From: Methylobacterium sp.
GTDB lineage: Bacteria; Pseudomonadota; Alphaproteobacteria; Rhizobiales; Beijerinckiaceae
DNA length: 64,000 bases
NCBI GenBank assembly: GCA_013823325.1
Contig: PNLY01000006.1
Span: 50,052 to 114,051, forward strand
Direction: 5' to 3'
Shown here: piece after piece, positions 7,744 through 64,000 of the stretch
Position numbering within the stretch: the stretch's first letter is position 1
How the letters are laid out: the number at the start of each line of letters is the position of its first letter
Made by a program: the position numbers and the translations under genes
Notes under the pieces: generated by a model
The model's input: the letters and a program-made list of their open reading frames with translations, nothing else
Database searches by the model: none
Told to the model about the DNA's origin: nothing

Positions 7744-8685
7744 CTACCGCGCCACCAGCACCTGCCTGCACTCGGCCGGCAGCGCGTCGAGCGACATGGG
7801 CGGCTTGGGCTTCGGCTTCGGGCCCGGCTTCGGCTTGGGCGGGTTGAAGATCGCCTGATACTGCTTCTCGATCCAGCCATCGAGCTCCGCGCCGCAGCCA
7901 TCGCCGAAATTGGGCGGCTCCTGGCCCTGGCAGCCCTCCATGCCGGCCGGGCAGCTGAGACGAATGTGGAAATGGTAATTGTGGCCCCAGATCGGCCGGA
8001 CCTTGTTCAGCCAGGCCTTGTCCGAGCCGGCCTCGCGGCAGAGCGCCACCTTCAGCGCCGGATTGACAAAGATGCGCTCGACCTTGGGCTCGCTCGCCGC
8101 CGCCTTGATCAGGCGGGTATGGGCCGGCGTCCAGTTCTTCGGGTTGACGTCGCGCCAGTCGGGACGCGCCATGTTGACCGCGGACATGTTCTCGCGATCG
8201 TCGCTGTCGAGCCGCTTCCTCGGCATCGGCGTCAGCCAGATATCGGCATCGAGCCCGATCTGGTGCGAGGCGTGGCCGGTGAGCATCGGCCCACCGCGCG
8301 GCTGCGAGATGTCGCCGACCAGGAGGCCCGGCCAGCCGGTGATCTTCGGCACCTCGCGAGCGAACTGCTCGAGGAAGGAGATCAGCTCGGGGTGGCCCCA
8401 GTTGCGGTTGCGAGCGAGGCGCATGACCTGCCAGTTCTCGCCATCGACCGGCAGCGCCGCCGCGCCGGCCAGGCAGCCGCGGGCATAGGAGCCGATGGCG
8501 CGCGCTCTCAGGGCGGCCGGAGTGGTCTTCTGGCCGAACAGAGCGCGCGCCGCATCGGGATAGGCCGCGATATTGGCGGCGCGGGTCTTCGCTTCCGCCT
8601 CGCCGGTGGACTGCGCGTGGGCAGCCCCGGCTGTGACGAGCATCGGCAAGAGAATCAGGCGGACGAAACGGCGAAGCGGCTGCAT
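7744..8685 (-). CDS. mepA: Penicillin-insensitive murein endopeptidase MepA
   Basis: A 313-residue periplasmic zinc peptidase with a signal peptide ending AHA near residue 24. The MepA hallmarks are present: YARGCLAGA near 67-75, GHASHQIGLDADIW at 137-150 with the first zinc His and Asp, and WGHNYHFHIRLSCP at 233-246 with the last His ligands. In E. coli MepA cleaves D-Ala-meso-DAP cross-links in peptidoglycan. The C-terminus carries a Pro/Lys repeat (PKPKPGPKPKPKP, about 275-290) that could bind negatively charged wall polymers. The gene is monocistronic, convergent with the extensin-like lipoprotein. Confidence 0.93.
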   Translation of the reverse strand: MQPLRRFVRLILLPMLVTAGAAHAQSTGEAEAKTRAANIAAYPDAARALFGQKTTPAALRARAIGSYARGCLAGAAALPVDGENWQVMRLARNRNWGHPELISFLEQFAREVPKITGWPGLLVGDISQPRGGPMLTGHASHQIGLDADIWLTPMPRKRLDSDDRENMSAVNMARPDWRDVNPKNWTPAHTRLIKAAASEPKVERIFVNPALKVALCREAGSDKAWLNKVRPIWGHNYHFHIRLSCPAGMEGCQGQEPPNFGDGCGAELDGWIEKQYQAIFNPPKPKPGPKPKPKPPMSLDALPAECRQVLVAR

Positions 8686-8833
8686 GGCCGCAGAATCGCA
8701 GGCGGTTCACCGGCAGGTCAAGCTCGCTGCGGCCCGTGGGCTGGACAAGCGCCGCACGAGCCGGCAGCGTCAGGGCAAGCCGAGCGAGCGGGCGCGACGT
8801 TCCGCAGGCGGCGGGACCGGAGGAGACGCCATC

Positions 8834-9817
8834 ATGACCAGCCCCCTGCTCGACCGCCGCACCGTGCTCGGCGGCCTCGGCGCCTCGCTCGCCTTGCCTG
8901 CGGCTGGCCGCGCACAGGGCGCCTGGCCGCAAGGGCGCACGCCGAAGCTGGTCGTGCCGTTCACGCCCGGCGGCGCCACCGATATCCTCGGACGGCTGAT
9001 CGCCGACAAGGTCGGCCAGGCTCTCGGGGCGACCTTCGTGGTCGAGAACCGGGCGGGTGCCGGCGGCAATATCGGGGTCGAGGCAGTGGCGCGCTCCGAG
9101 CCGAACGGCGACACATTCCTGATCGTCTCGGTCGGCCTCGTCGCCAATCCTGCACTCTACGCCAAGGTCAATTACGACCCGCTCACCGATTTCGCCCCGA
9201 TCACCATGGTGGCGCTGGTGCCGAACCTCCTCGTCGTCGGCCCGACACTCAAGGTCAAGGACACGGCCGAGCTGATCGCCTATGGCAAGGCCAATCCGGG
9301 CAAGCTGACCTATGCCTCCTCCGGCGTCGGCACCTCGATCCATCTTGCCGGCGAGCTCTTCCAGAAGCTGACTGGCATCAAGATGGTGCATGTGCCCTAT
9401 CGCGGCTCAGCCCAGGCGATGCAGGATCTGATCGGCGGGCGCGTCGACCTGATGTTCGACAACATCACCGCGGCGCTGCCGCAGGTCCGCGCCGGCACGG
9501 TGCGCGGCTTCGGCGTCACCACGGCGCAGCGTGCACCGACTGCCTCCGAATTTCCGCCGATCAACGATCTCGTGCCGGGCTTCGACGTCTCCTCCTGGTT
9601 CGCCCTGTTCGCGCCGGCGAAGACGCCGCAGGCGATCGTCGACCGGCTGCAGGCCGAGACCAAGGCGGCGATCGCCGACCCCGTCGTGCGCGGCAAGATG
9701 GACCAGCTCGCCGCACAGCCGGTCGGCAACACGCCGGCCGAGCTCGCCGCCTTCGTCCGCGCCGAGCAGGGCAAATGGGTCGGCCTGATCCGCGAGGTCG
9801 GCATCAAGGCGGAGTGA
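8834..9817 (+). CDS. Bug family (TctC-like) periplasmic substrate-binding protein
   Basis: A 327-residue protein with an N-terminal export signal containing twin arginines (LDRRTVLGGLGASLALPAAGRA), so Tat export is likely. The mature N-terminus KLVVPFTPGGATDILGRLIADKVG and VENRAGAGGNIGVEAVARSEPNGDT are diagnostic of Bug/TctC proteins, which capture carboxylates or similar solutes. GGAGGAGACGCC precedes the ATG at 8834, and the upstream in-frame extension has no family features. No TctA/TctB membrane genes lie nearby, which is common for this amplified family, so transport partner and ligand are unknown. Confidence 0.88.
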   Translation: MTSPLLDRRTVLGGLGASLALPAAGRAQGAWPQGRTPKLVVPFTPGGATDILGRLIADKVGQALGATFVVENRAGAGGNIGVEAVARSEPNGDTFLIVSVGLVANPALYAKVNYDPLTDFAPITMVALVPNLLVVGPTLKVKDTAELIAYGKANPGKLTYASSGVGTSIHLAGELFQKLTGIKMVHVPYRGSAQAMQDLIGGRVDLMFDNITAALPQVRAGTVRGFGVTTAQRAPTASEFPPINDLVPGFDVSSWFALFAPAKTPQAIVDRLQAETKAAIADPVVRGKMDQLAAQPVGNTPAELAAFVRAEQGKWVGLIREVGIKAE

Positions 9818-57955: not shown

Positions 57956-58045
57956 GGACAGGTGGCCGAGTGGTTGAAGGCGCACGCCTGGAAAGTGTGT
58001 ATACGGGAAACCGTATCGCGGGTTCGAATCCCGCCCTGTCCGCCA
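57956..58045 (+). tRNA. tRNA-Ser (anticodon GGA)
   Basis: A complete 90-base class II tRNA with encoded CCA. The acceptor stem is GGACAGG / CCTGTCC with discriminator G at 58042 and CCA at 58043-58045. The D arm has GGCCGAGTGGTTGAAGG. The anticodon stem CACGC / GTGTG encloses loop CTGGAAA with anticodon GGA, which reads UCC and UCU. A long variable arm (ATACGGGAAACCGTAT) and the T arm GCGGGTTCGAATCCCGC complete the cloverleaf. A tyrosine integrase gene begins 86 bases downstream, so this tRNA is the island's integration target. Confidence 0.97.
58020..58045 (+). other. Putative attL site at the tRNA-Ser 3' end
   Basis: Tyrosine integrases of this kind usually recombine in the T-arm/acceptor end of a tRNA gene, which leaves the gene intact and a direct repeat at the far end of the island. 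The second copy is not in the window, so the core boundaries cannot be set. Confidence 0.4.
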
Positions 58046-58130
58046 TCTTCGCGCTAACGCGCTGGAACGTCAGAACTTCTTCAATATCAGCCTCTTGCAG
58101 ATGGCCCCCTGGTACAAGCAGGAGGTACAA

Positions 58131-59663
58131 GTGGCACTGGGCATGTCGCGACCGTTCAAGCATCCCACGACCGGCGTCTACTACTTCCGCAAGGCCGTTC
58201 CCGAGGACCTGCGACCGCTCGTAGGCCGGCGGGAAGAGAAGCGGTCTCTCCGAACCAAAGACCCCAAAGAGGCGCGACTCATCTTCGCGGAGGTCGCCGC
58301 GGAGGTCTCGAAGGAATGGATTCGCCTGCGCTCAGAGCCCACGGCGCTCTCCCGCAGGGATGCAACCGCCTTGGCTGGCAGGTGGTACCGCTGGTTTACG
58401 GTCCAGCACGAAGACGCCCCAGGCGATACTGCCGAGGGCTGGGCCATGCTCTTTGAGCAGCTTCGAGATCTCGACAGGTTCGGCGTGGGACATCCCGACG
58501 AGCCGGACGAGTATGATAGGACGCCAGCCACGCAGGAACGAGTGAACGGGTTCCTTGCGACTCAGGGGCGGCTGGAGGAGTTCCTCGCTGGCGAAGGCGT
58601 CAAATTGTCCTCGTCGTCGCACGGCGTCTTCTACGAGGCCCTGGAGGCCGAGTTCGTGGCAGCTCTGCGGCTCTTTTCGAGGCGTGCCGAAGGCGACTAC
58701 GGCCGCGATAGGTGGTCGGAGCGGCATCCAGAATGGCGACCGGATAGGCACGCGGCAGTCAGCCTTGCATGCAGCCTCACGAACATCTTCGACGGCTGGG
58801 CGAGAGAGACGGAACCTGCCAGCAAGACCCTCTACTCGTTCCGCCGGATCAAGGACCAACTCGCCGCGCATCTCGGCCATGAAGACGCCTCTCGGATCAC
58901 CACCGAGGACCTGCTTGGCTGGAAGGACAAGCTAGTCGCTGACGGGAAGTCCAAGAAGACCATCCGGGATGCCCAGTTGGCACCGATCCGCGCGCTTCTG
59001 GGATGGGCCGTGAAGAACAAGAGGCTGTCGCAGAACCCGGCGACCGGCATAAAACTCGCCGACGACAAGGGCGGGCCAAGCCGACGCGGGTTCCGCGATG
59101 CTGAGGCACGGGCAATCCTCGAAGCGGCAAGGCGCGACACCCGCCTCCACTATCGGTGGGTTCCGTGGGTTTGCGCGCTCTCGGGGGCGCGCATCGCCGA
59201 GGTGTGCCAGCTACGCGCCGAAGATATCCGTGACGAAGACGGCGCGTGGATCATGCATTTCTCATGGGATGCTGGCCGGCTGAAGAACACGGGATCCGAC
59301 CGGCGCGTTCCGGTGCACTCAGCGCTGGTGACCGAGGGCTTTCTCGACTTTGTTCGGACGATCAAAGCGGGACCGCTCTTCAAGGAAATCAGCCCCGACC
59401 GGTTCGGTAGCCGTGGCGGCAACGGGACCAAGATACTGAGCCGCTGGGTCCGAGAGGTCGTGAAGATCACCGACGAGAACGTCGGACCGAATCATAGCTG
59501 GCGGCACCGCTTCAAATCCCTCTGCCGCGCGCATGGCATAGACAAGGAGTTCCATGACGCGCTGACAGGGCATCGACCTGGGGACGAGGGCAGCAACTAC
59601 GGCGAGGTCCCAATTCCAGCTCTGGCGCGCGAGATCGAGAAACTTCCCCATCCTCTAGCTTGA
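58131..59663 (+). CDS. Tyrosine-type site-specific integrase
   Basis: A 510-residue recombinase. The N-terminus (FKHPTTGVYYFRKAVPEDLRPLVG...RSLRTKDPKEAR) is the DUF6538-like arm-binding domain, the SAM-like core-binding domain lies at about 215-305, and the catalytic domain at about 320-495. Catalytic residues are Arg354 (SGARIAEVCQL), a Lys near 385, His455 and Arg458 (HSWRHRF), His481 (TGHRPGD) and nucleophile Tyr490 (SNYGEV), so the enzyme looks intact. The GTG at 58131 has AGGAGG five bases away and is preferred to ATGs at 58095 or 58143. It inserts and, with helpers, excises the island at tRNA-Ser. Confidence 0.92.
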   Translation: MALGMSRPFKHPTTGVYYFRKAVPEDLRPLVGRREEKRSLRTKDPKEARLIFAEVAAEVSKEWIRLRSEPTALSRRDATALAGRWYRWFTVQHEDAPGDTAEGWAMLFEQLRDLDRFGVGHPDEPDEYDRTPATQERVNGFLATQGRLEEFLAGEGVKLSSSSHGVFYEALEAEFVAALRLFSRRAEGDYGRDRWSERHPEWRPDRHAAVSLACSLTNIFDGWARETEPASKTLYSFRRIKDQLAAHLGHEDASRITTEDLLGWKDKLVADGKSKKTIRDAQLAPIRALLGWAVKNKRLSQNPATGIKLADDKGGPSRRGFRDAEARAILEAARRDTRLHYRWVPWVCALSGARIAEVCQLRAEDIRDEDGAWIMHFSWDAGRLKNTGSDRRVPVHSALVTEGFLDFVRTIKAGPLFKEISPDRFGSRGGNGTKILSRWVREVVKITDENVGPNHSWRHRFKSLCRAHGIDKEFHDALTGHRPGDEGSNYGEVPIPALAREIEKLPHPLA

Positions 59664-59801: not shown

Positions 59802-61085
59802 CTACTCGCCTACAGCCTTCTGGTGGACAGGGATGCTGATGGAGCAGATGTCAGCCACGGCTTGCTCCATCACCTTCTTGGCCTCTTCAGCCTGAGAGCT
59901 ACGGACGAGCAGGCCGTCATGAAGGCCCAGCGCCACGATCCTCCGCGACCGCAGCTCATCGAGCACCGCGGCCATCACCTCGCTCTCCGTGTGCATCAGT
60001 GACAGACCAACTCCTCTTCCAAAGCTGTCCTTGATGGCGGGATGGAGGGCCAGCACGGCTCGGCGTAGCTCCGGGACCGTCACCCTATCGGGCTGCGGCG
60101 TCTCTGCATCCTTGGGCCAAGCCGTCCGGGTGTGCTGGTCGAAGAACATCGCGTTGACCAGGACCTTGACTGCGTCACGCGGGACCACGAGGCCGGGGAT
60201 GGCGTACAGATCACCCTCTGGCGGCTGAAGCCCTGCACGGGCATAGGCCAAGCGCGTGAACATCGACGCGTAGTCGAGAACGACCGGAGCCTCTCCCTCG
60301 ATCCTGATGGCCCCCCGCCGCTTGCGCGCAAGGTTCTGCCAGAAGCCCCCATACAGACGTCCCGACAGGTCGAAGCGTGTGCTGCTGTCGGGCGTCACGA
60401 AGTGGCGACGCATCCTCCTGTTCGCCGGGTCCACGGGCTCCTCGCCATCGTGCTCGAACGTGATGTCTGCTGCCGCGAGAAAGCTATTCAGGCCGCGTAG
60501 GCGGTCCCGCATTTCCATCGTAGGCGGGGTGTCGGGATAGTCGACCAGTACCCGTGAAACCGGAGCTGCGGATCCGCCGGACATCTGTCGACTGGTTAGC
60601 AGGATGACCTCTTCCCGTTCGTCTTGACCGATGTCGAGTTGCGTAACCCCACGGCTCGTCAATTCGGATCGGAGTGAACCTGTGGGTCGGATCGATGACG
60701 CCTCGCCTCGTTGGGCGCGAGGCCCTTGCCAATCCAACACGTCAAGTTCTGCCAGCTCGAAGAGCAAGTCGCGGAGCACCTTGCCTTTGGCTGGGCCGCT
60801 GTAGCGCGGGATTCGGCGGCCGTTGTTGCCGGTGAGGACGGCGAGACGACCGGAGGGACTGGGGGATAGGGTCTCGTACGCTAGGTTGGCTATGATGACA
60901 CCTAGCGCGGTCTCCCGGTCAGCTTCAGCCTGTCCCCGGCGCTTGCGGAGGCGCTTGTTGGTGGCCAGCTCACGCCGCTCCACCAGCGCCGCGTACGTGG
61001 CAGCTAGGCCGTGCAGCCGCACACCCACGGGGATGAGCCACGGGTCGAACCAGCGGTGGCGCTCGGGGATAGGCTTGATCTTCAT
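59802..61085 (-). CDS. Stand-alone protein with family-A DNA polymerase-like palm motifs
   Basis: A 427-residue protein found in mobile elements and usually annotated hypothetical. Residues 1-230 are unrecognised. From 238 onwards FDLSGRLYGGFWQNL leads to a polymerase-like core: motif A 'VVLDYASMFTRLAYARAG' with Asp271 (compare DYSQIELR of Pol I), 'GDLYAIPG' around 291-298, an R-x3-K-x3-N motif B at 303-311, and motif C LGLHDGLLV with His389-Asp390 (compare VHDELV). The closing IPVHQKAVGE matches the strand after motif C in Pol I. No exonuclease domain is present. Function is inferred: a minimal polymerase or a relic. No clear ribosome site precedes the ATG. Confidence 0.6.
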   Translation of the reverse strand: MKIKPIPERHRWFDPWLIPVGVRLHGLAATYAALVERRELATNKRLRKRRGQAEADRETALGVIIANLAYETLSPSPSGRLAVLTGNNGRRIPRYSGPAKGKVLRDLLFELAELDVLDWQGPRAQRGEASSIRPTGSLRSELTSRGVTQLDIGQDEREEVILLTSRQMSGGSAAPVSRVLVDYPDTPPTMEMRDRLRGLNSFLAAADITFEHDGEEPVDPANRRMRRHFVTPDSSTRFDLSGRLYGGFWQNLARKRRGAIRIEGEAPVVLDYASMFTRLAYARAGLQPPEGDLYAIPGLVVPRDAVKVLVNAMFFDQHTRTAWPKDAETPQPDRVTVPELRRAVLALHPAIKDSFGRGVGLSLMHTESEVMAAVLDELRSRRIVALGLHDGLLVRSSQAEEAKKVMEQAVADICSISIPVHQKAVGE

Positions 61086-61236: not shown

Positions 61237-61923
61237 CTAGTGTGGGTGGTAATCGGCGAGCCGCTCCAGCACGCGGGACACTTGCACAGGCGACCAAGCT
61301 CCGCCCCGAGAGGTCGGGATGCCCTTTTCGTTCAACGCGCGGGCAAGCGCGCCCAAGGAAGAAACCCCGGCCGCGGCTAGCTCCCGCAACATCGGTTCGA
61401 GATCAGCCGCTCTGGCCTGGGCTCTGGCGCTCTGGAAGGCCCGTCCTGCGTCCTGGGCGTTGCGTGACGGGGTAACTCCACGATGGCCGCCTAACACCGC
61501 TCCTCGCGCCTTTGCGGCGGCCAGCGCGGCCTTGGTGCGGGCAGAGATCATCTTACGCTCGGCCTGCGCCACGACCGCCATGATTCCGACCACCATCTCG
61601 TTCGCCTCAGGCATGTCGACCGCTGTGAAGCCGACGTCCGACTTCTGGAGGCCGAGGAGGAAATGCGCGTCGCGCGACAGGCGGTCGAGCTTGGCGATCA
61701 ACAGCCGAGCACCATGCAGCCGACATAGTCGCATAGCCTCGGCGAGCTTTGGGCGATCTGAATTGCTGCCGCTCTCGACCTCGATGACCTCGGCCACGAG
61801 TTCCCAGGCGCCGCCGTTCAGGAACGCTCTAACCGCCTCTTGCTGAGCCTCCAGACCCAACCCGGAGCGCCCCTGCTTCTGGGTCGATACCCGGTAGTAG
61901 GCGACGAACTTGCCCTCTGCCAT
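61237..61923 (-). CDS. Serine recombinase, resolvase/invertase family
   Basis: A 228-residue recombinase. The catalytic domain (about 6-140) has VAYYRVSTQKQGRSGLGLEAQ with nucleophile Ser13, LLIAKLDRLSRDAHFLLGLQ with the active-site Asp/Arg region, and 'AVVAQAERKMISARTKAALAAAKARG' for the long E helix. The C-terminal part (about 185-228) is a short helix-turn-helix (LGALARALNEKGIPTSRGGAWSPVQVSRVLERL). The size fits small resolvases and invertases rather than large phage serine integrases. It may resolve island dimers or invert a segment. A 13-10-13 inverted repeat, a plausible crossover site or operator, lies three bases upstream of the start. Confidence 0.9.
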   Translation of the reverse strand: MAEGKFVAYYRVSTQKQGRSGLGLEAQQEAVRAFLNGGAWELVAEVIEVESGSNSDRPKLAEAMRLCRLHGARLLIAKLDRLSRDAHFLLGLQKSDVGFTAVDMPEANEMVVGIMAVVAQAERKMISARTKAALAAAKARGAVLGGHRGVTPSRNAQDAGRAFQSARAQARAADLEPMLRELAAAGVSSLGALARALNEKGIPTSRGGAWSPVQVSRVLERLADYHPH

Positions 61924-61996: not shown

Positions 61997-62749
61997 TCAG
62001 GCGGCCGGGAGCTTGTTGAGCTTCCCCAGGTTGCAGGGCCAGCAGATGATCCGCGCGTTCTCATAGGAGTTGTCCCCGCCGTGCTGCGGCGAGACATGAT
62101 GATCGAAGTGCCACGGCGTGTTCGGATGCTGCGCATGTGGTTTTATTTCCGACCACGCAGTGCTGCAGCGCGGGCACCGCTCCGGATGTTCGGCCACCAG
62201 CCGGCGTTTGACCTCGACGGAGAACCGCGGCGTCCGTGCGCTGTACTCCTTGCTCCGCTTGCGCTGGCAGACCATGCAGCGGTTGTGAGAGTTCCAAGGC
62301 GTCTCGGTGGCGCAGGCCGGGCAGTACTTGCGGGGGCGCTCGGCAAGCGAGATCCGCCGCCCGCCTTGGCCTTCTGATGGGGGCACGGGGGGAAGGTCGA
62401 TTGTCCCACCTTGTGGTAGCGACTCAGATTTTTCCGCCGAAACCAAGCGTCGATGAGGCGCTCTATCGGCCTGGGCTGTAAGTGCAGCACTGCCAGACGC
62501 GAGGGCCCAGATCCCTCTTGCCGGGCTTGCCACCTCACCACCGTCGAAGAGGTCCTTACGCGCCCAGCGGATCGCCTTCTCGAAGAGGGCATCCTTGCCG
62601 TCAGGGGTGACCGTGGCCAAGTCGGACGCAGGAACGGCCTCGTTGGCCCGCACCCAAGCGTACACCTGGCCGGGCGTTGAAGGGCCCAGCGCCTTGAGCG
62701 CGTTGATCACCCAGGCCCGATACAGCTCTCGGGAGGCTTCCGTCTCCAT
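61997..62749 (-). CDS. Winged-helix (Mrr N-terminal-like) / HNH endonuclease
   Basis: A 250-residue nuclease. Residues about 8-85 (YRAWVINALKALGPSTPGQVYAWVRAN ... KAIRWARKDLFDGGEVASPARGIWALA) look like the winged-helix domain at the N-terminus of Mrr restriction enzymes. A linker follows, then CPAC/CMVC zinc pairs at 143-161 and an HNH domain at about 190-250 with CPRC, HFDHHVSPQHGGDNSYENARIICWPCNLGKLNK; catalytic His is in FDHH and Asn in YENAR. It is last in a leftward operon with the NucS/EVE-like gene (TTGA overlap if TTG 62770 is used) and hsdS. I chose ATG 62749 because GAGG precedes it. The target is unknown. Confidence 0.8.
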   Translation of the reverse strand: METEASRELYRAWVINALKALGPSTPGQVYAWVRANEAVPASDLATVTPDGKDALFEKAIRWARKDLFDGGEVASPARGIWALASGSAALTAQADRAPHRRLVSAEKSESLPQGGTIDLPPVPPSEGQGGRRISLAERPRKYCPACATETPWNSHNRCMVCQRKRSKEYSARTPRFSVEVKRRLVAEHPERCPRCSTAWSEIKPHAQHPNTPWHFDHHVSPQHGGDNSYENARIICWPCNLGKLNKLPAA

Positions 62750-62766
62750 AGTCTCGCCTCTCCAGC

Positions 62767-63813
62767 TCAACCCAGCTCGACGCCGAGGCGGTCTCGCAGG
62801 ACGTCAAGCGTGCGGGGCTCGCGCAGTTTGCAGACGATGTTCTGGTTGGCGAACATGCCCTCGAACCTGACGGCGTCGGCGATAGGAACCGTCTTCACCC
62901 AGTCCACGGCCACCGCGTATTCGGCCACCTCCGGATCGTTCCGATCATGTGCCAGGTTGGGCTGGGCCAACGGCTGATCCAGCAAAGGGCCAGCCTCGGT
63001 GACGAAGTCGCGTGCCATCACCACGGGCGCGCTCACCTTGCCGTAGCCGACATAGCCCGCGCCCTTCTGATAAACCGCGATGGGGTCGCCAACGCTCAGA
63101 CGTCGTAGCGGGCCGGACCACTTCTCGCCGCCGCCTGCGGCTACGAACCCGTAACGGCGCATATCCTCCCAGGAGCGGGTGTCCCCGTCACCGGCGTTGA
63201 CATACCAGAGGCCTTGCCAAGGCGCCTGGACCTTGGCTTCAGACCTGACGGCCACCTCTTGCTGGTCAAGCAGCCAATCCGTCGTCAGCAGTGTCTGCCC
63301 GGCTTCCTGGAAGACGGTGAAGAACGCCGTGTTGATGGCGATGCCGTGCGTCTCGGACAGGTAGCGGACGATCCGCTGCGATGAAGGGTCCAGGGCGCTC
63401 GCCACGATGACCATGGAGTGGCTCTGATTGAGGCGCTCCGGCGGGCTCGAACCGAAGCGCTCTGCGAAGGCCGTTGCGAGATTTCGCCCAAGGTAGGTTT
63501 GGGCCCTCTCGTAGATCTGCGGCGTCGTCAGGGACTGGACCCAGCTCGCATAATCCAGCACCTGTGCGACGATCTCGCGGGGCGTGCGGTCCCGCTTCAG
63601 CTCGACGATGGAGAGGTTGCCGTCAGAATCGATCCCGAGGAGATCGATGCGGCCGCCGAAATCTGTGATGATCTGGCGGCCGATGATCAGGACATCGAGG
63701 CCTAGGAGGGACGGCTGGTCGGCCACCCACCCCTCGATCATGTCCTCACTGGCGAGCTGGCCTTGCGGAACGGGGACGAGCGCACCGTTAGTCAATTTGT
63801 AGAGGCGGGTCAC
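62767..63813 (-). CDS. NucS-like PD-(D/E)XK nuclease with EVE-like C-terminal domain
   Basis: A 348-residue protein in two parts. Residues about 15-130 form a NucS/DUF91-type nuclease: Glu27, GGRIDLLGID (Asp57), LSIVELKRDRTPREIVAQVLDYASWV with Glu71, Lys73 and Gln84, an intact PD-(D/E)XK set. Residues about 200-330 (GLWYVNAGDGDTRSWEDMRRYGFVAAGGGEKWSGPLRRLSVGDPIAVYQKGAGYVGYGKV) resemble EVE/PUA-like domains that read modified bases. A nuclease joined to a base reader suggests modification-dependent restriction, an inference. The GTG start overlaps hsdS (GTGA) and the stop overlaps the HNH gene. Confidence 0.75.
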   Translation of the reverse strand: MTRLYKLTNGALVPVPQGQLASEDMIEGWVADQPSLLGLDVLIIGRQIITDFGGRIDLLGIDSDGNLSIVELKRDRTPREIVAQVLDYASWVQSLTTPQIYERAQTYLGRNLATAFAERFGSSPPERLNQSHSMVIVASALDPSSQRIVRYLSETHGIAINTAFFTVFQEAGQTLLTTDWLLDQQEVAVRSEAKVQAPWQGLWYVNAGDGDTRSWEDMRRYGFVAAGGGEKWSGPLRRLSVGDPIAVYQKGAGYVGYGKVSAPVVMARDFVTEAGPLLDQPLAQPNLAHDRNDPEVAEYAVAVDWVKTVPIADAVRFEGMFANQNIVCKLREPRTLDVLRDRLGVELG

Positions 63814-64000
63814 GCGTCACCTGAGGCGGCTGACGACCGCCTTCCTCTGCGACGAGGAATTCCGCCAGCTGCCTCGCGCTCGGCTCGGATGCGGTCCAGC
63901 AGGGCGCTCGCCGGCTCGTCGTTCGGATCCTGGGGAACCAGCTCGCCGCGGAAAGCTTTGGCCAGGACGGCTTGATCGAGACGATCAAGAAGCACTAGCA
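63810..64000 (-). CDS. hsdS: Type I restriction enzyme specificity subunit HsdS, C-terminal fragment
   Basis: The last 63 residues of a protein that continues beyond the window, with no start before the edge. The sequence LLDRLDQAVLAKAFRGELVPQDPNDEPASALLDRIRAEREA is the near-invariant C-terminal end of many HsdS subunits, where the second conserved helical region pairs with HsdM. HsdS reads the DNA target for the type I methylase and translocase. The tail after it is basic and low in complexity. The stop overlaps the next gene's GTG, so the system and the two accessory nucleases share a transcript. hsdM and hsdR must lie to the right, outside the window. Confidence 0.82.
   Translation of the reverse strand, partial: LVLLDRLDQAVLAKAFRGELVPQDPNDEPASALLDRIRAEREAAGGIPRRRGRRSSAASGDA

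What the first reader, a model, noticed from the sequence alone, without database searches (positions are those of the whole stretch)
62000..64000. Overlapping operon joining HsdS, a NucS/EVE-like nuclease and an HNH nuclease
The sequence shows three leftward genes linked by GTGA and TTGA stop/start overlaps: the C-terminal end of a type I specificity subunit, a PD-(D/E)XK nuclease with an EVE-like reader domain (catalytic Asp57, Glu71, Lys73 intact), and a winged-helix/HNH nuclease with zinc pairs. HsdS marks and reads self DNA, EVE domains are known to recognise modified bases, and the HNH protein could cut. This suggests a composite system in which accessory nucleases extend a type I restriction system to modified or methylation-escaping phage DNA. 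I know of no described system with exactly this trio.
Basis: partly seen in the sequence, partly recalled or inferred. Interest (0 to 1): 0.78.

Follow-up and report, generated by a model that had tools for sequence, protein, structure and literature searches.

The report
Restriction operon with extra nuclease genes
A bacterial DNA-cutting immune system on a mobile island carries extra DNA-cutting enzymes, one of which is repeatedly found attached to such systems in many bacteria, so it may be a second line of defence against viruses with altered DNA.

Summary
The window ends inside hsdS; the rest of hsdS, then hsdM and hsdR, sit on another contig of the same genome that abuts in frame. The operon is hsdR-X(DUF429)-hsdM-hsdS-P1-P2, chained by short overlaps, on a ~13-kb integrative island at tRNA-Ser.

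P1 (348 aa) is a NucS-like PD-(D/E)XK nuclease (D57, E71, K73 invariant in 43 rows) with an EVE-like reader by fold: a catalogued, uncharacterised PADLOC candidate, PDC-S11. Of its 80 closest relatives, 22 have HsdS directly upstream, 42 have type I genes within 10 kb, 7 more follow an MmeI-like enzyme, 31 show neither. The linkage is recurrent and modular.

P2 (250 aa) joins an Mrr_N winged helix to a zinc/HNH nuclease. No full-length relative was found; the exact trio is a singleton.

Most likely: a type I operon with appended type IV-like, modification-dependent nucleases. Modification dependence is inferred, not shown. The principle is published (EVE with type I; TgvAB inside type I operons): new variant of a known kind.

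The parts
63810..64000 (-). C-terminal part of hsdS; the gene runs off the contig end (window 64000 = C6:114051) and continues on C37 (L030:1-1279, -); further upstream there: hsdM (L030:1276-2742, -), gene X/DUF429 (L030:2739-3587, -), hsdR (L030:3584-6970, -)
62767..63813 (-). P1: 348-aa NucS-like PD-(D/E)XK nuclease with C-terminal EVE-like domain; PADLOC candidate PDC-S11
63226..63813 (-). P1 residues 1-196: nuclease part (D57, E71, K73, Q84 invariant in 43 of 43 aligned rows)
62770..63219 (-). P1 residues 199-348: EVE/PUA-type putative modified-base reader
61997..62770 (-). P2: winged-helix (Mrr_N type) + zinc ribbon + HNH nuclease; 257 aa from TTG 62770, 250 aa from the likelier ATG 62749
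62495..62707 (-). P2 Mrr_N-like winged helix (residues 22-92)
   Evidence: PF14338, E 1.5e-7; same module before Mrr-type catalytic parts elsewhere
62021..62128 (-). P2 HNH core (residues 215-250)
   Evidence: PF01844; PHROG labels endonuclease VII, HNH endonuclease
61237..61923 (-). serine recombinase of the island, just downstream of P2
   Evidence: Resolvase E 2.6e-27
58095..59663 (+). tyrosine integrase next to tRNA-Ser
   Evidence: DUF6538; Phage_integrase just under its cut-off
57956..58045 (+). tRNA-Ser (GGA), likely integration target
58029..58047 (+). 19-bp direct repeat at the tRNA 3' end; second copy at L030:7155-7173 beyond hsdR; bounds an island of about 13.1 kb

Best explanation
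A mobile, integrase-borne type I restriction-modification operon whose 3' end carries two extra nucleases. P1 most likely acts as a modification-dependent (type IV-like) endonuclease: the EVE-like domain binds a modified base in incoming DNA and the NucS-like domain cuts. P2 most likely does a similar job, with an Mrr-type winged helix steering an HNH nuclease. Expression from one operon would let the cell cut unmodified foreign DNA (HsdRMS) and foreign DNA whose modification blocks HsdR (P1, P2). Shown: gene order and overlaps, domains, conserved catalytic residues, the island's parts, recurrent P1-RM linkage. Inferred: the contig join, modification dependence, which base is read, defence activity, co-transcription. 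The role of gene X is not explained. No physical contact with HsdS is claimed.
For: Contig ends abut in frame, and both HsdS pieces fit the same profiles in order: PDLC03127, positions 139-432 then 436-484; PDLC03162, 4-393 then 397-425. One PF02384 match and one hsdS with two target domains in the genome. Stop/start overlaps of 4 bp link hsdR/X, X/hsdM, hsdM/hsdS and hsdS/P1. Island: tRNA-Ser, integrase, 19-bp direct repeat, G+C 63-65% inside against 67-72% before it; P1 in 1 of 67 genus genomes, the window's own. P1: PDC-S11 E 1.5e-127; NucS/EndoMS, then 2p5d, THYN1 with 5mC DNA (5j3e), ASCH, 1zce and YTH structures among the matches (that 2p5d and 1zce are EVE proteins is recalled). Context: of 80 relatives 22 HsdS directly upstream, 42 type I within 10 kb, 7 MmeI-like, against about 0.3 of 80 expected near an hsdS (my arithmetic). 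At least 15 changes of the type I label on a 78-row tree. Precedents: PMC7641849, PMC11411939, PMC11037411.
Against: I saw no activity data for PDC-S11. 31 of 80 relatives show neither type I nor MmeI-like neighbours. Of 9 annotated plasmid loci 3 have type I genes near P1. P1's C-terminal part has no Pfam EVE match at E<=1; profile comparison with EVE gives 37% probability (three controls 0.6-3.2%); Foldseek E-values for the EVE-type hits are 9.7e-6, 2.7e-3 and 1.3e-2, with TM-scores to the target of 0.45-0.52 and rmsd 6.3-8.4, and DrmAB and SduA structures rank among them. In the repeat search the next-best match, 22 bp at 95% in an unrelated place, has E 0.001 against 2.6e-4 for the 19-bp repeat, so the repeat counts mainly for where it lies. 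Type I HsdM and three N6/N4-type methylase matches limit which 6mA contexts P2 could attack.
Confidence: 0.55

Rival explanations
1. Passive cargo: P1 and P2 are free-standing defence genes that settled at the 3' end of an operon, where insertion harms least. They may not need modified DNA and have no working relation to the type I enzyme.
For: 31 of 80 relatives without detected type I or MmeI-like neighbours; the place between hsdS and P1 holds unrelated defence-type genes elsewhere: Abi_2, PtuA- and Old-like ATPases, NYN-LOTUS, PtuB, Schlafen AlbA_2; P1 has no RM gene annotated near it on a Priestia plasmid.
Against: Position directly after hsdS or after an MmeI-like enzyme recurs in lineages that the tree keeps apart; in L104, L134 and L140 P1 lies directly between hsdS and hsdR, in L152 between them with one further ORF before hsdR (its P1 ORF is only 317 aa).
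Confidence: 0.25
2. P1 is a true subunit or effector of the type I enzyme, docked on HsdS, with the EVE-like domain giving the complex a second target class.
For: Repeated placement right behind the specificity gene, also behind specificity-bearing MmeI-like enzymes; Bell et al. predict that type I systems with EVE partners restrict modified DNA (PMC7641849).
Against: About half of the relatives have no detected HsdS nearby; no interface was modelled.
Confidence: 0.12
3. P1 or P2 is a backup effector set off when a phage blocks the type I enzyme, as PrrC is.
For: PrrC is embedded in a type IC locus and acts when EcoPrrI is inhibited (PMC12707154 passages); DarTG2 lies between hsdS and hsdR (PMC12255303 passages).
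Against: P1 has a reader-like domain and a DNA-nuclease fold; no sensor of the RM complex is visible; many relatives show no type I system.
Confidence: 0.06
4. P1 is a mismatch-repair endonuclease of the EndoMS/NucS family.
For: Nuclease domain matches NucS.
Against: Scores are far under the family cut-offs (34 bits against 216; 14.4 against 252), the match covers only the nuclease part, the second domain is EVE-like, and P1 is found in 1 of 67 genus genomes.
Confidence: 0.02

Closest known systems
PADLOC PDC-S11
   Same: P1 matches model PDLC04916 over residues 4-343 (E 1.5e-127)
   Different: Only a candidate label; other models under the same label cover a different kind of protein (DUF4268). 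Two papers in the library hold the name; I read passages of one (PMC12813430), which gives no function, and saw only the listing of the other (PMC10855318).
EVE-PD(D/E)XK putative type IV enzymes and EVE partners of type I systems (Bell et al. 2020, PMC7641849; section 9 and passages read)
   Same: Same two domain kinds; EVE with type I is stated there, with the prediction that such systems hit modified DNA
   Different: The type I partners there are stand-alone EVE proteins, mostly in archaea, and PIN-GNAT-EVE fusions; no NucS or DUF91 in the text
TgvAB in the Vibrio type I operon (PMC11411939; passages read)
   Same: Modification-dependent restriction embedded in a type I operon, both arms tested there
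   Different: GmrSD-type DUF262/DUF1524 proteins, unrelated domains
wH-HNH 6mA-dependent type IV enzymes (PMC11037411; abstract, sections 15 and 17 and passages read)
   Same: Winged helix then HNH, 224-283 aa there, 250 aa here
   Different: Domain here is Mrr_N by Pfam; the 6mA/GATC motif was not tested; P2 is in an operon with a methylase, while 87% of their wH fusions had none among the three genes on either side
EndoMS/NucS (2vld, 5gke)
   Same: Nuclease domain fold
   Different: EVE-like domain in place of the NucS N-terminal domain (that domain is recalled); family cut-offs not met
Mrr
   Same: N-terminal domain of P2
   Different: HNH in place of the PD-(D/E)XK Mrr catalytic part

Membership tests
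Type I restriction-modification system | hsdR, hsdM and hsdS with two target domains in one locus | tested here: met
   rests on the contig join, for which frame, profile positions and the flanking direct repeat agree but no read crosses
PDC-S11 | full-length match to a PDC-S11 model | tested here: met
   residues 4-343 on positions 7-354 of 358
PD-(D/E)XK nuclease (P1) | D...ExK residues in the fold | tested here: met
EVE domain (P1) | EVE/PUA fold | tested here: met
   2p5d E 9.7e-6, 5j3e E 2.7e-3, 1zce E 1.3e-2; model pLDDT 93; moderate TM-scores and no residue ranges given
EVE domain (P1) | sequence-profile match to PF01878 | tested here: not met
   not among Pfam hits at E<=1; profile-profile 37%. 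So EVE-like by fold, not a Pfam EVE member
EVE-type type IV enzyme (P1) | cleavage only of modified DNA | not testable with these tools
   needs biochemistry
EndoMS/NucS mismatch endonuclease | equivalog score over the whole protein | tested here: not met
   34 bits against a cut-off of 216; match limited to residues 22-93
wH-HNH 6mA-dependent type IV enzyme (P2) | winged helix plus HNH in 224-283 aa | tested here: met
wH-HNH 6mA-dependent type IV enzyme (P2) | DpnI-type 6mA-reading winged helix | tested here: inconclusive
   Pfam gives Mrr_N, nothing DpnI-like at E<=1; model too poor to compare
Mrr (P2) | Mrr catalytic domain | tested here: not met
   HNH instead; PADLOC mREase_IV only E 0.0069 over residues 48-99
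Conserved hsdS-P1-P2 trio | same three genes together in other genomes | tested here: not met
   P2 in 0 of 80 P1 loci; full-length P2 in no other searched genome

The most novel reading that the evidence does not exclude
P1 stands for a widespread class of restriction-coupled readers: an EVE-nuclease that rides with type I and MmeI-like enzymes because it uses or checks their methylation or specificity, so that one operon separates unmodified, self-modified and foreign-modified DNA. Winged-helix nucleases of changing catalytic type (HNH here, Mrr in L141) are added behind it as a third arm.
Probability: 0.15. Interest if true: 0.75.

Novelty: new variant of a known kind. Interest (0 to 1): 0.42.

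Why it matters
If P1 proves modification-dependent, many type I and MmeI-like operons would carry their own type IV arm, which would explain how they cope with phages whose DNA modification blocks ordinary restriction. I saw no functional work on the family; it is recurrent, and its single-gene size makes it easy to test. P2 suggests how new nucleases arise by joining an Mrr-type winged helix to an HNH module that stands alone in other genomes of the genus.

Tried and rejected
P2 relatives: viral contigs (19 pattern stretches, 0 confirmed), plasmids (E<=1e-5) and phages (E<=0.01) gave none; order and class genomes gave only domain-level hits. P2's model was too poor for a fold search, so none was run. 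My home-made HNH profile was badly aligned; I rely on the P2 profile and on a motif scan that found one HNH ORF, 2.7 kb from P1 and on the other strand, in 80 loci. A winged-helix profile hit 1 of 96 P1 loci, L141, which was itself one of its seeds. EVE by Pfam failed. A mismatch-repair reading of P1 was dropped on the scores. Promoter and terminator scans were uninformative. X has no match among the ORFs of the 96 P1 loci and none in the PDB sequences.

Counts: my HsdM/S/R profiles first gave 20 HsdS-adjacent and 40 type I of 80. Pfam and PADLOC then showed that L134 and L141, left as 'none', have HsdS directly upstream: 22 and 42, and 'none' falls from 33 to 31. Of those 31 only single neighbour genes of L075, L100, L128 and L147 were scanned, and 12 of the 80 loci had under 4 kb of upstream DNA, so 42 is a lower bound. 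The type IIG profile was built from five of the seven loci it reports. L101, L115 and L152 have incomplete P1 ORFs and stay in the counts but not in the tree, which used the first labels (L134 and L141 as 'none') and the quick method. PLSDB gene tables are incomplete, so the plasmid contexts may miss genes. That the PDC names come from a search for genes embedded in defence operons is a guess from citations of a preprint that is not held. DefensePredictor (PMC13092281; passages) has no NucS, DUF91 or EVE domain in its main text.
Full report
Where it lies. The genome has one match for the HsdM-type methylase family and one hsdS with two target domains, both on contig C37. C37 opens with an hsdS that runs off its first base, then hsdM and hsdR, all leftward. 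The two contig ends share no overlap of 9 bases or more, but laid end to end they continue hsdS in frame. Both HsdS pieces fit the same PADLOC specificity profiles in order: PDLC03127 at positions 139-432 and 436-484, PDLC03162 at 4-393 and 397-425. Between hsdR and hsdM lies gene X (L030:2739-3587), 282 aa, Pfam DUF429 at E 3.8e-9; it overlaps both neighbours by the four bases ATGA. DUF429 is held to be an RNase H-fold family (recalled). I take the operon to be hsdR-X-hsdM-hsdS-P1-P2. The join is inferred, not sequenced.

The island. tRNA-Ser(GGA) lies at 57956-58045, followed by a tyrosine integrase at 58095-59663. The last 17 bases of the tRNA plus two form a 19-bp direct repeat (58029-58047) with an exact second copy at L030:7155-7173, just beyond hsdR, in the same orientation. 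By score alone it is not far above chance (E 2.6e-4; the next match, elsewhere, E 0.001); its place at the tRNA end and just behind hsdR makes the case. It bounds about 13.1 kb and also supports the join. G+C is 63-65% inside against 67-72% in the 4 kb before it. P1 occurs in 1 of 67 genomes of the genus, the window's own.

P1. PADLOC calls it PDC-S11 (E 1.5e-127). Pfam sees only a sub-threshold NucS_C match and NCBIfam a match far under the NucS cut-off. In 43 aligned rows D57, E71, K73 and Q84 never vary. The model has mean pLDDT 93 and pTM 0.61, so the mutual placing of the domains is unsure. Foldseek puts EndoMS/NucS and 2p5d first (5gke E 1.7e-6, 2vld 6.4e-6, 2p5d 9.7e-6), then DrmAB and SduA, THYN1 bound to 5-methylcytosine DNA (5j3e, 2.7e-3), an ASCH protein, YTH domains and 1zce (1.3e-2). 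The PDB sequence search finds only NucS/EndoMS. Profile comparison of residues 197-348 with EVE proteins of related genomes gives 37% probability, against 0.6-3.2% for three controls. I conclude: catalytic residues intact, C-terminal domain EVE-like by fold, base specificity unknown.

P1's neighbours elsewhere. With profiles built from loci outside these 80, 20 of 80 had HsdS within 50 bp upstream on the same strand, 17 had type I genes upstream with something between, and 3 had them otherwise placed; 7 had an MmeI-like type IIG enzyme upstream (this profile was built from five of these seven), and 33 had none found. Pfam and PADLOC checks moved L134 and L141 from 'none' to HsdS directly upstream. 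Final count: 22 of 80 HsdS directly upstream, 42 of 80 type I within 10 kb, 7 of 80 MmeI-like, 31 of 80 none (recounted). The type IIG label was confirmed on three of the seven with PADLOC, on one of these also with Pfam. By chance, 113 hsdS domain matches in 150 order genomes would put about 0.3 of 80 loci within 10 kb, taking genomes of about 4.3 Mb; this is my arithmetic, the 80 come largely from other taxa, and clustering of defence genes would raise it. In the order sample, 22 of 297 genomes match P1, 8 of them strongly and over most of its length, the window's own included; of the other 7, two have type I genes next to it. Among plasmids 104 records match, 41 of them over at least 80% of P1; of 9 loci read, 3 have type I genes near P1 and 6 do not. 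One phage record matches weakly. On a 78-row tree the type I label needs at least 15 changes, and the HsdS-adjacent group 12, of which well-supported branches force 10. P1 has therefore moved in or out of such operons many times. In L104, L134 and L140 it sits directly between hsdS and hsdR.

P2. Pfam gives Mrr_N (E 1.5e-7) and HNH just over its cut-off; PHROGs label the C-terminal half endonuclease VII/HNH. No full-length relative appeared in 297 order, 385 class and 67 genus genomes, which overlap as samples, nor in plasmids, phages or viral contigs. The winged helix occurs elsewhere in ORFs that look Mrr-like by my reading. The zinc/HNH half occurs in stand-alone ORFs of 123 and 120 aa in two genomes of the genus, at 54% and 31% identity. 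P2 thus looks like a fusion of two modules that also occur apart. A parallel stands in L141 (a Dehalococcoidia bin): hsdM, a short hsdS, P1, then a 294-aa Mrr (Mrr_N plus Mrr_cat) overlapping P1 by 4 bp. It is 1 of 80.

What is known. Bell et al. (PMC7641849; section 9 and passages read) describe EVE-PD(D/E)XK putative type IV enzymes, stand-alone EVE proteins with type I systems, and predict that such systems hit modified DNA. TgvAB in a Vibrio type I operon is a tested case of modification-dependent restriction inside a type I cluster (PMC11411939; passages). DarTG2 between hsdS and hsdR (PMC12255303; passages) and PrrC (PMC12707154; passages) show other embedded effectors. Helbrecht et al. 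(PMC11037411; abstract, sections 15 and 17 and passages) show winged-helix nuclease fusions, wH-HNH among them, as 6mA-dependent. Lu et al. (PMC10101028; abstract and passages) show it for an SRA-wH-HNH enzyme. I found no functional paper on PDC-S11 or on NucS-EVE proteins with type I systems; this covers open-licence PMC papers only, and mostly their listings.

Self-conflict. The genome holds three matches of the N6/N4 methylase family and one C5-methylase match, over half of the profile and with a stop inside, beside the type I methylase. A reader of modified cytosine in P1 would therefore probably meet less self DNA than a general 6mA reader; this is a constraint, not evidence.

Verdict. 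Observation confirmed. A type I operon with appended nucleases on a mobile island is well supported. The composite idea is plausible as two lines of defence in one operon, untested as a joint machine, and the trio is not a conserved system.

Noticed in passing
L030:2739-3587 (-), off the window: Gene X, a 282-aa DUF429 protein between hsdR and hsdM with ATGA overlaps on both sides: a further accessory gene of this operon, role unknown; no relative among ORFs of 96 P1 loci.
   Followed up: partly
L141:1162-5130: hsdM-hsdS-P1-Mrr with overlaps of 4, 1 and 4 bp in a Dehalococcoidia bin: a parallel to the window with Mrr in place of the winged-helix HNH protein.
   Followed up: partly
L078, L080, L081, L087, L095 (gene just before P1): HsdR plus a fused HsdM-HsdS polypeptide is followed by a 248-259-aa gene and then P1. 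Only the L080 gene was scanned (weak HEPN_RiboL-PSP match, E 6e-4); whether the five are related was not tested.
   Followed up: partly
L117, L118, L119, L124, L132, L154 (genes between hsdS and P1): The slot between hsdS and P1 holds varied genes: Old/GajA-like and PtuA-like ATPases, Abi_2/AbiD, NYN-LOTUS, PtuB, a Schlafen AlbA_2 protein. The 3' end of type I operons looks like a cargo bay.
   Followed up: partly
L075:8919-9989: P1 of Celeribacter is preceded, 11 bp away, by a gene that PADLOC calls RmrA (E 5.6e-169; HTH plus M78 peptidase).
   Followed up: no
window 59802-61085 (-): 427-aa island protein with no Pfam match at E<=1 and a PHROG match of unknown function (phrog_4756, E 2e-23).
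   Followed up: no
L177:1492-1863 and L178:1483-1845: Stand-alone zinc/HNH ORFs like the second half of P2 in two genomes of the genus, each near an ORF that looks integrase-like to my eye, not searched.
   Followed up: partly
L071 (Pseudomonas plasmid), around 8000-9030: hsdM-hsdS followed by a P1 relative that lies in two pieces without annotation, then zorA of a Zorya system. Left as it is.
   Followed up: no
L179 (G000:C8:31773-32321): The genome's only C5-methylase family match covers half of the profile and holds a TAG stop.
   Followed up: no
L027:8186-11873: Halomontanus plasmid beside a BREX cluster: a DUF4268 protein that PADLOC also calls PDC-S11, then a P1 relative (not itself scanned with PADLOC), then an Mrr_cat protein. 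The PDC-S11 label thus covers unlike proteins.
   Followed up: partly
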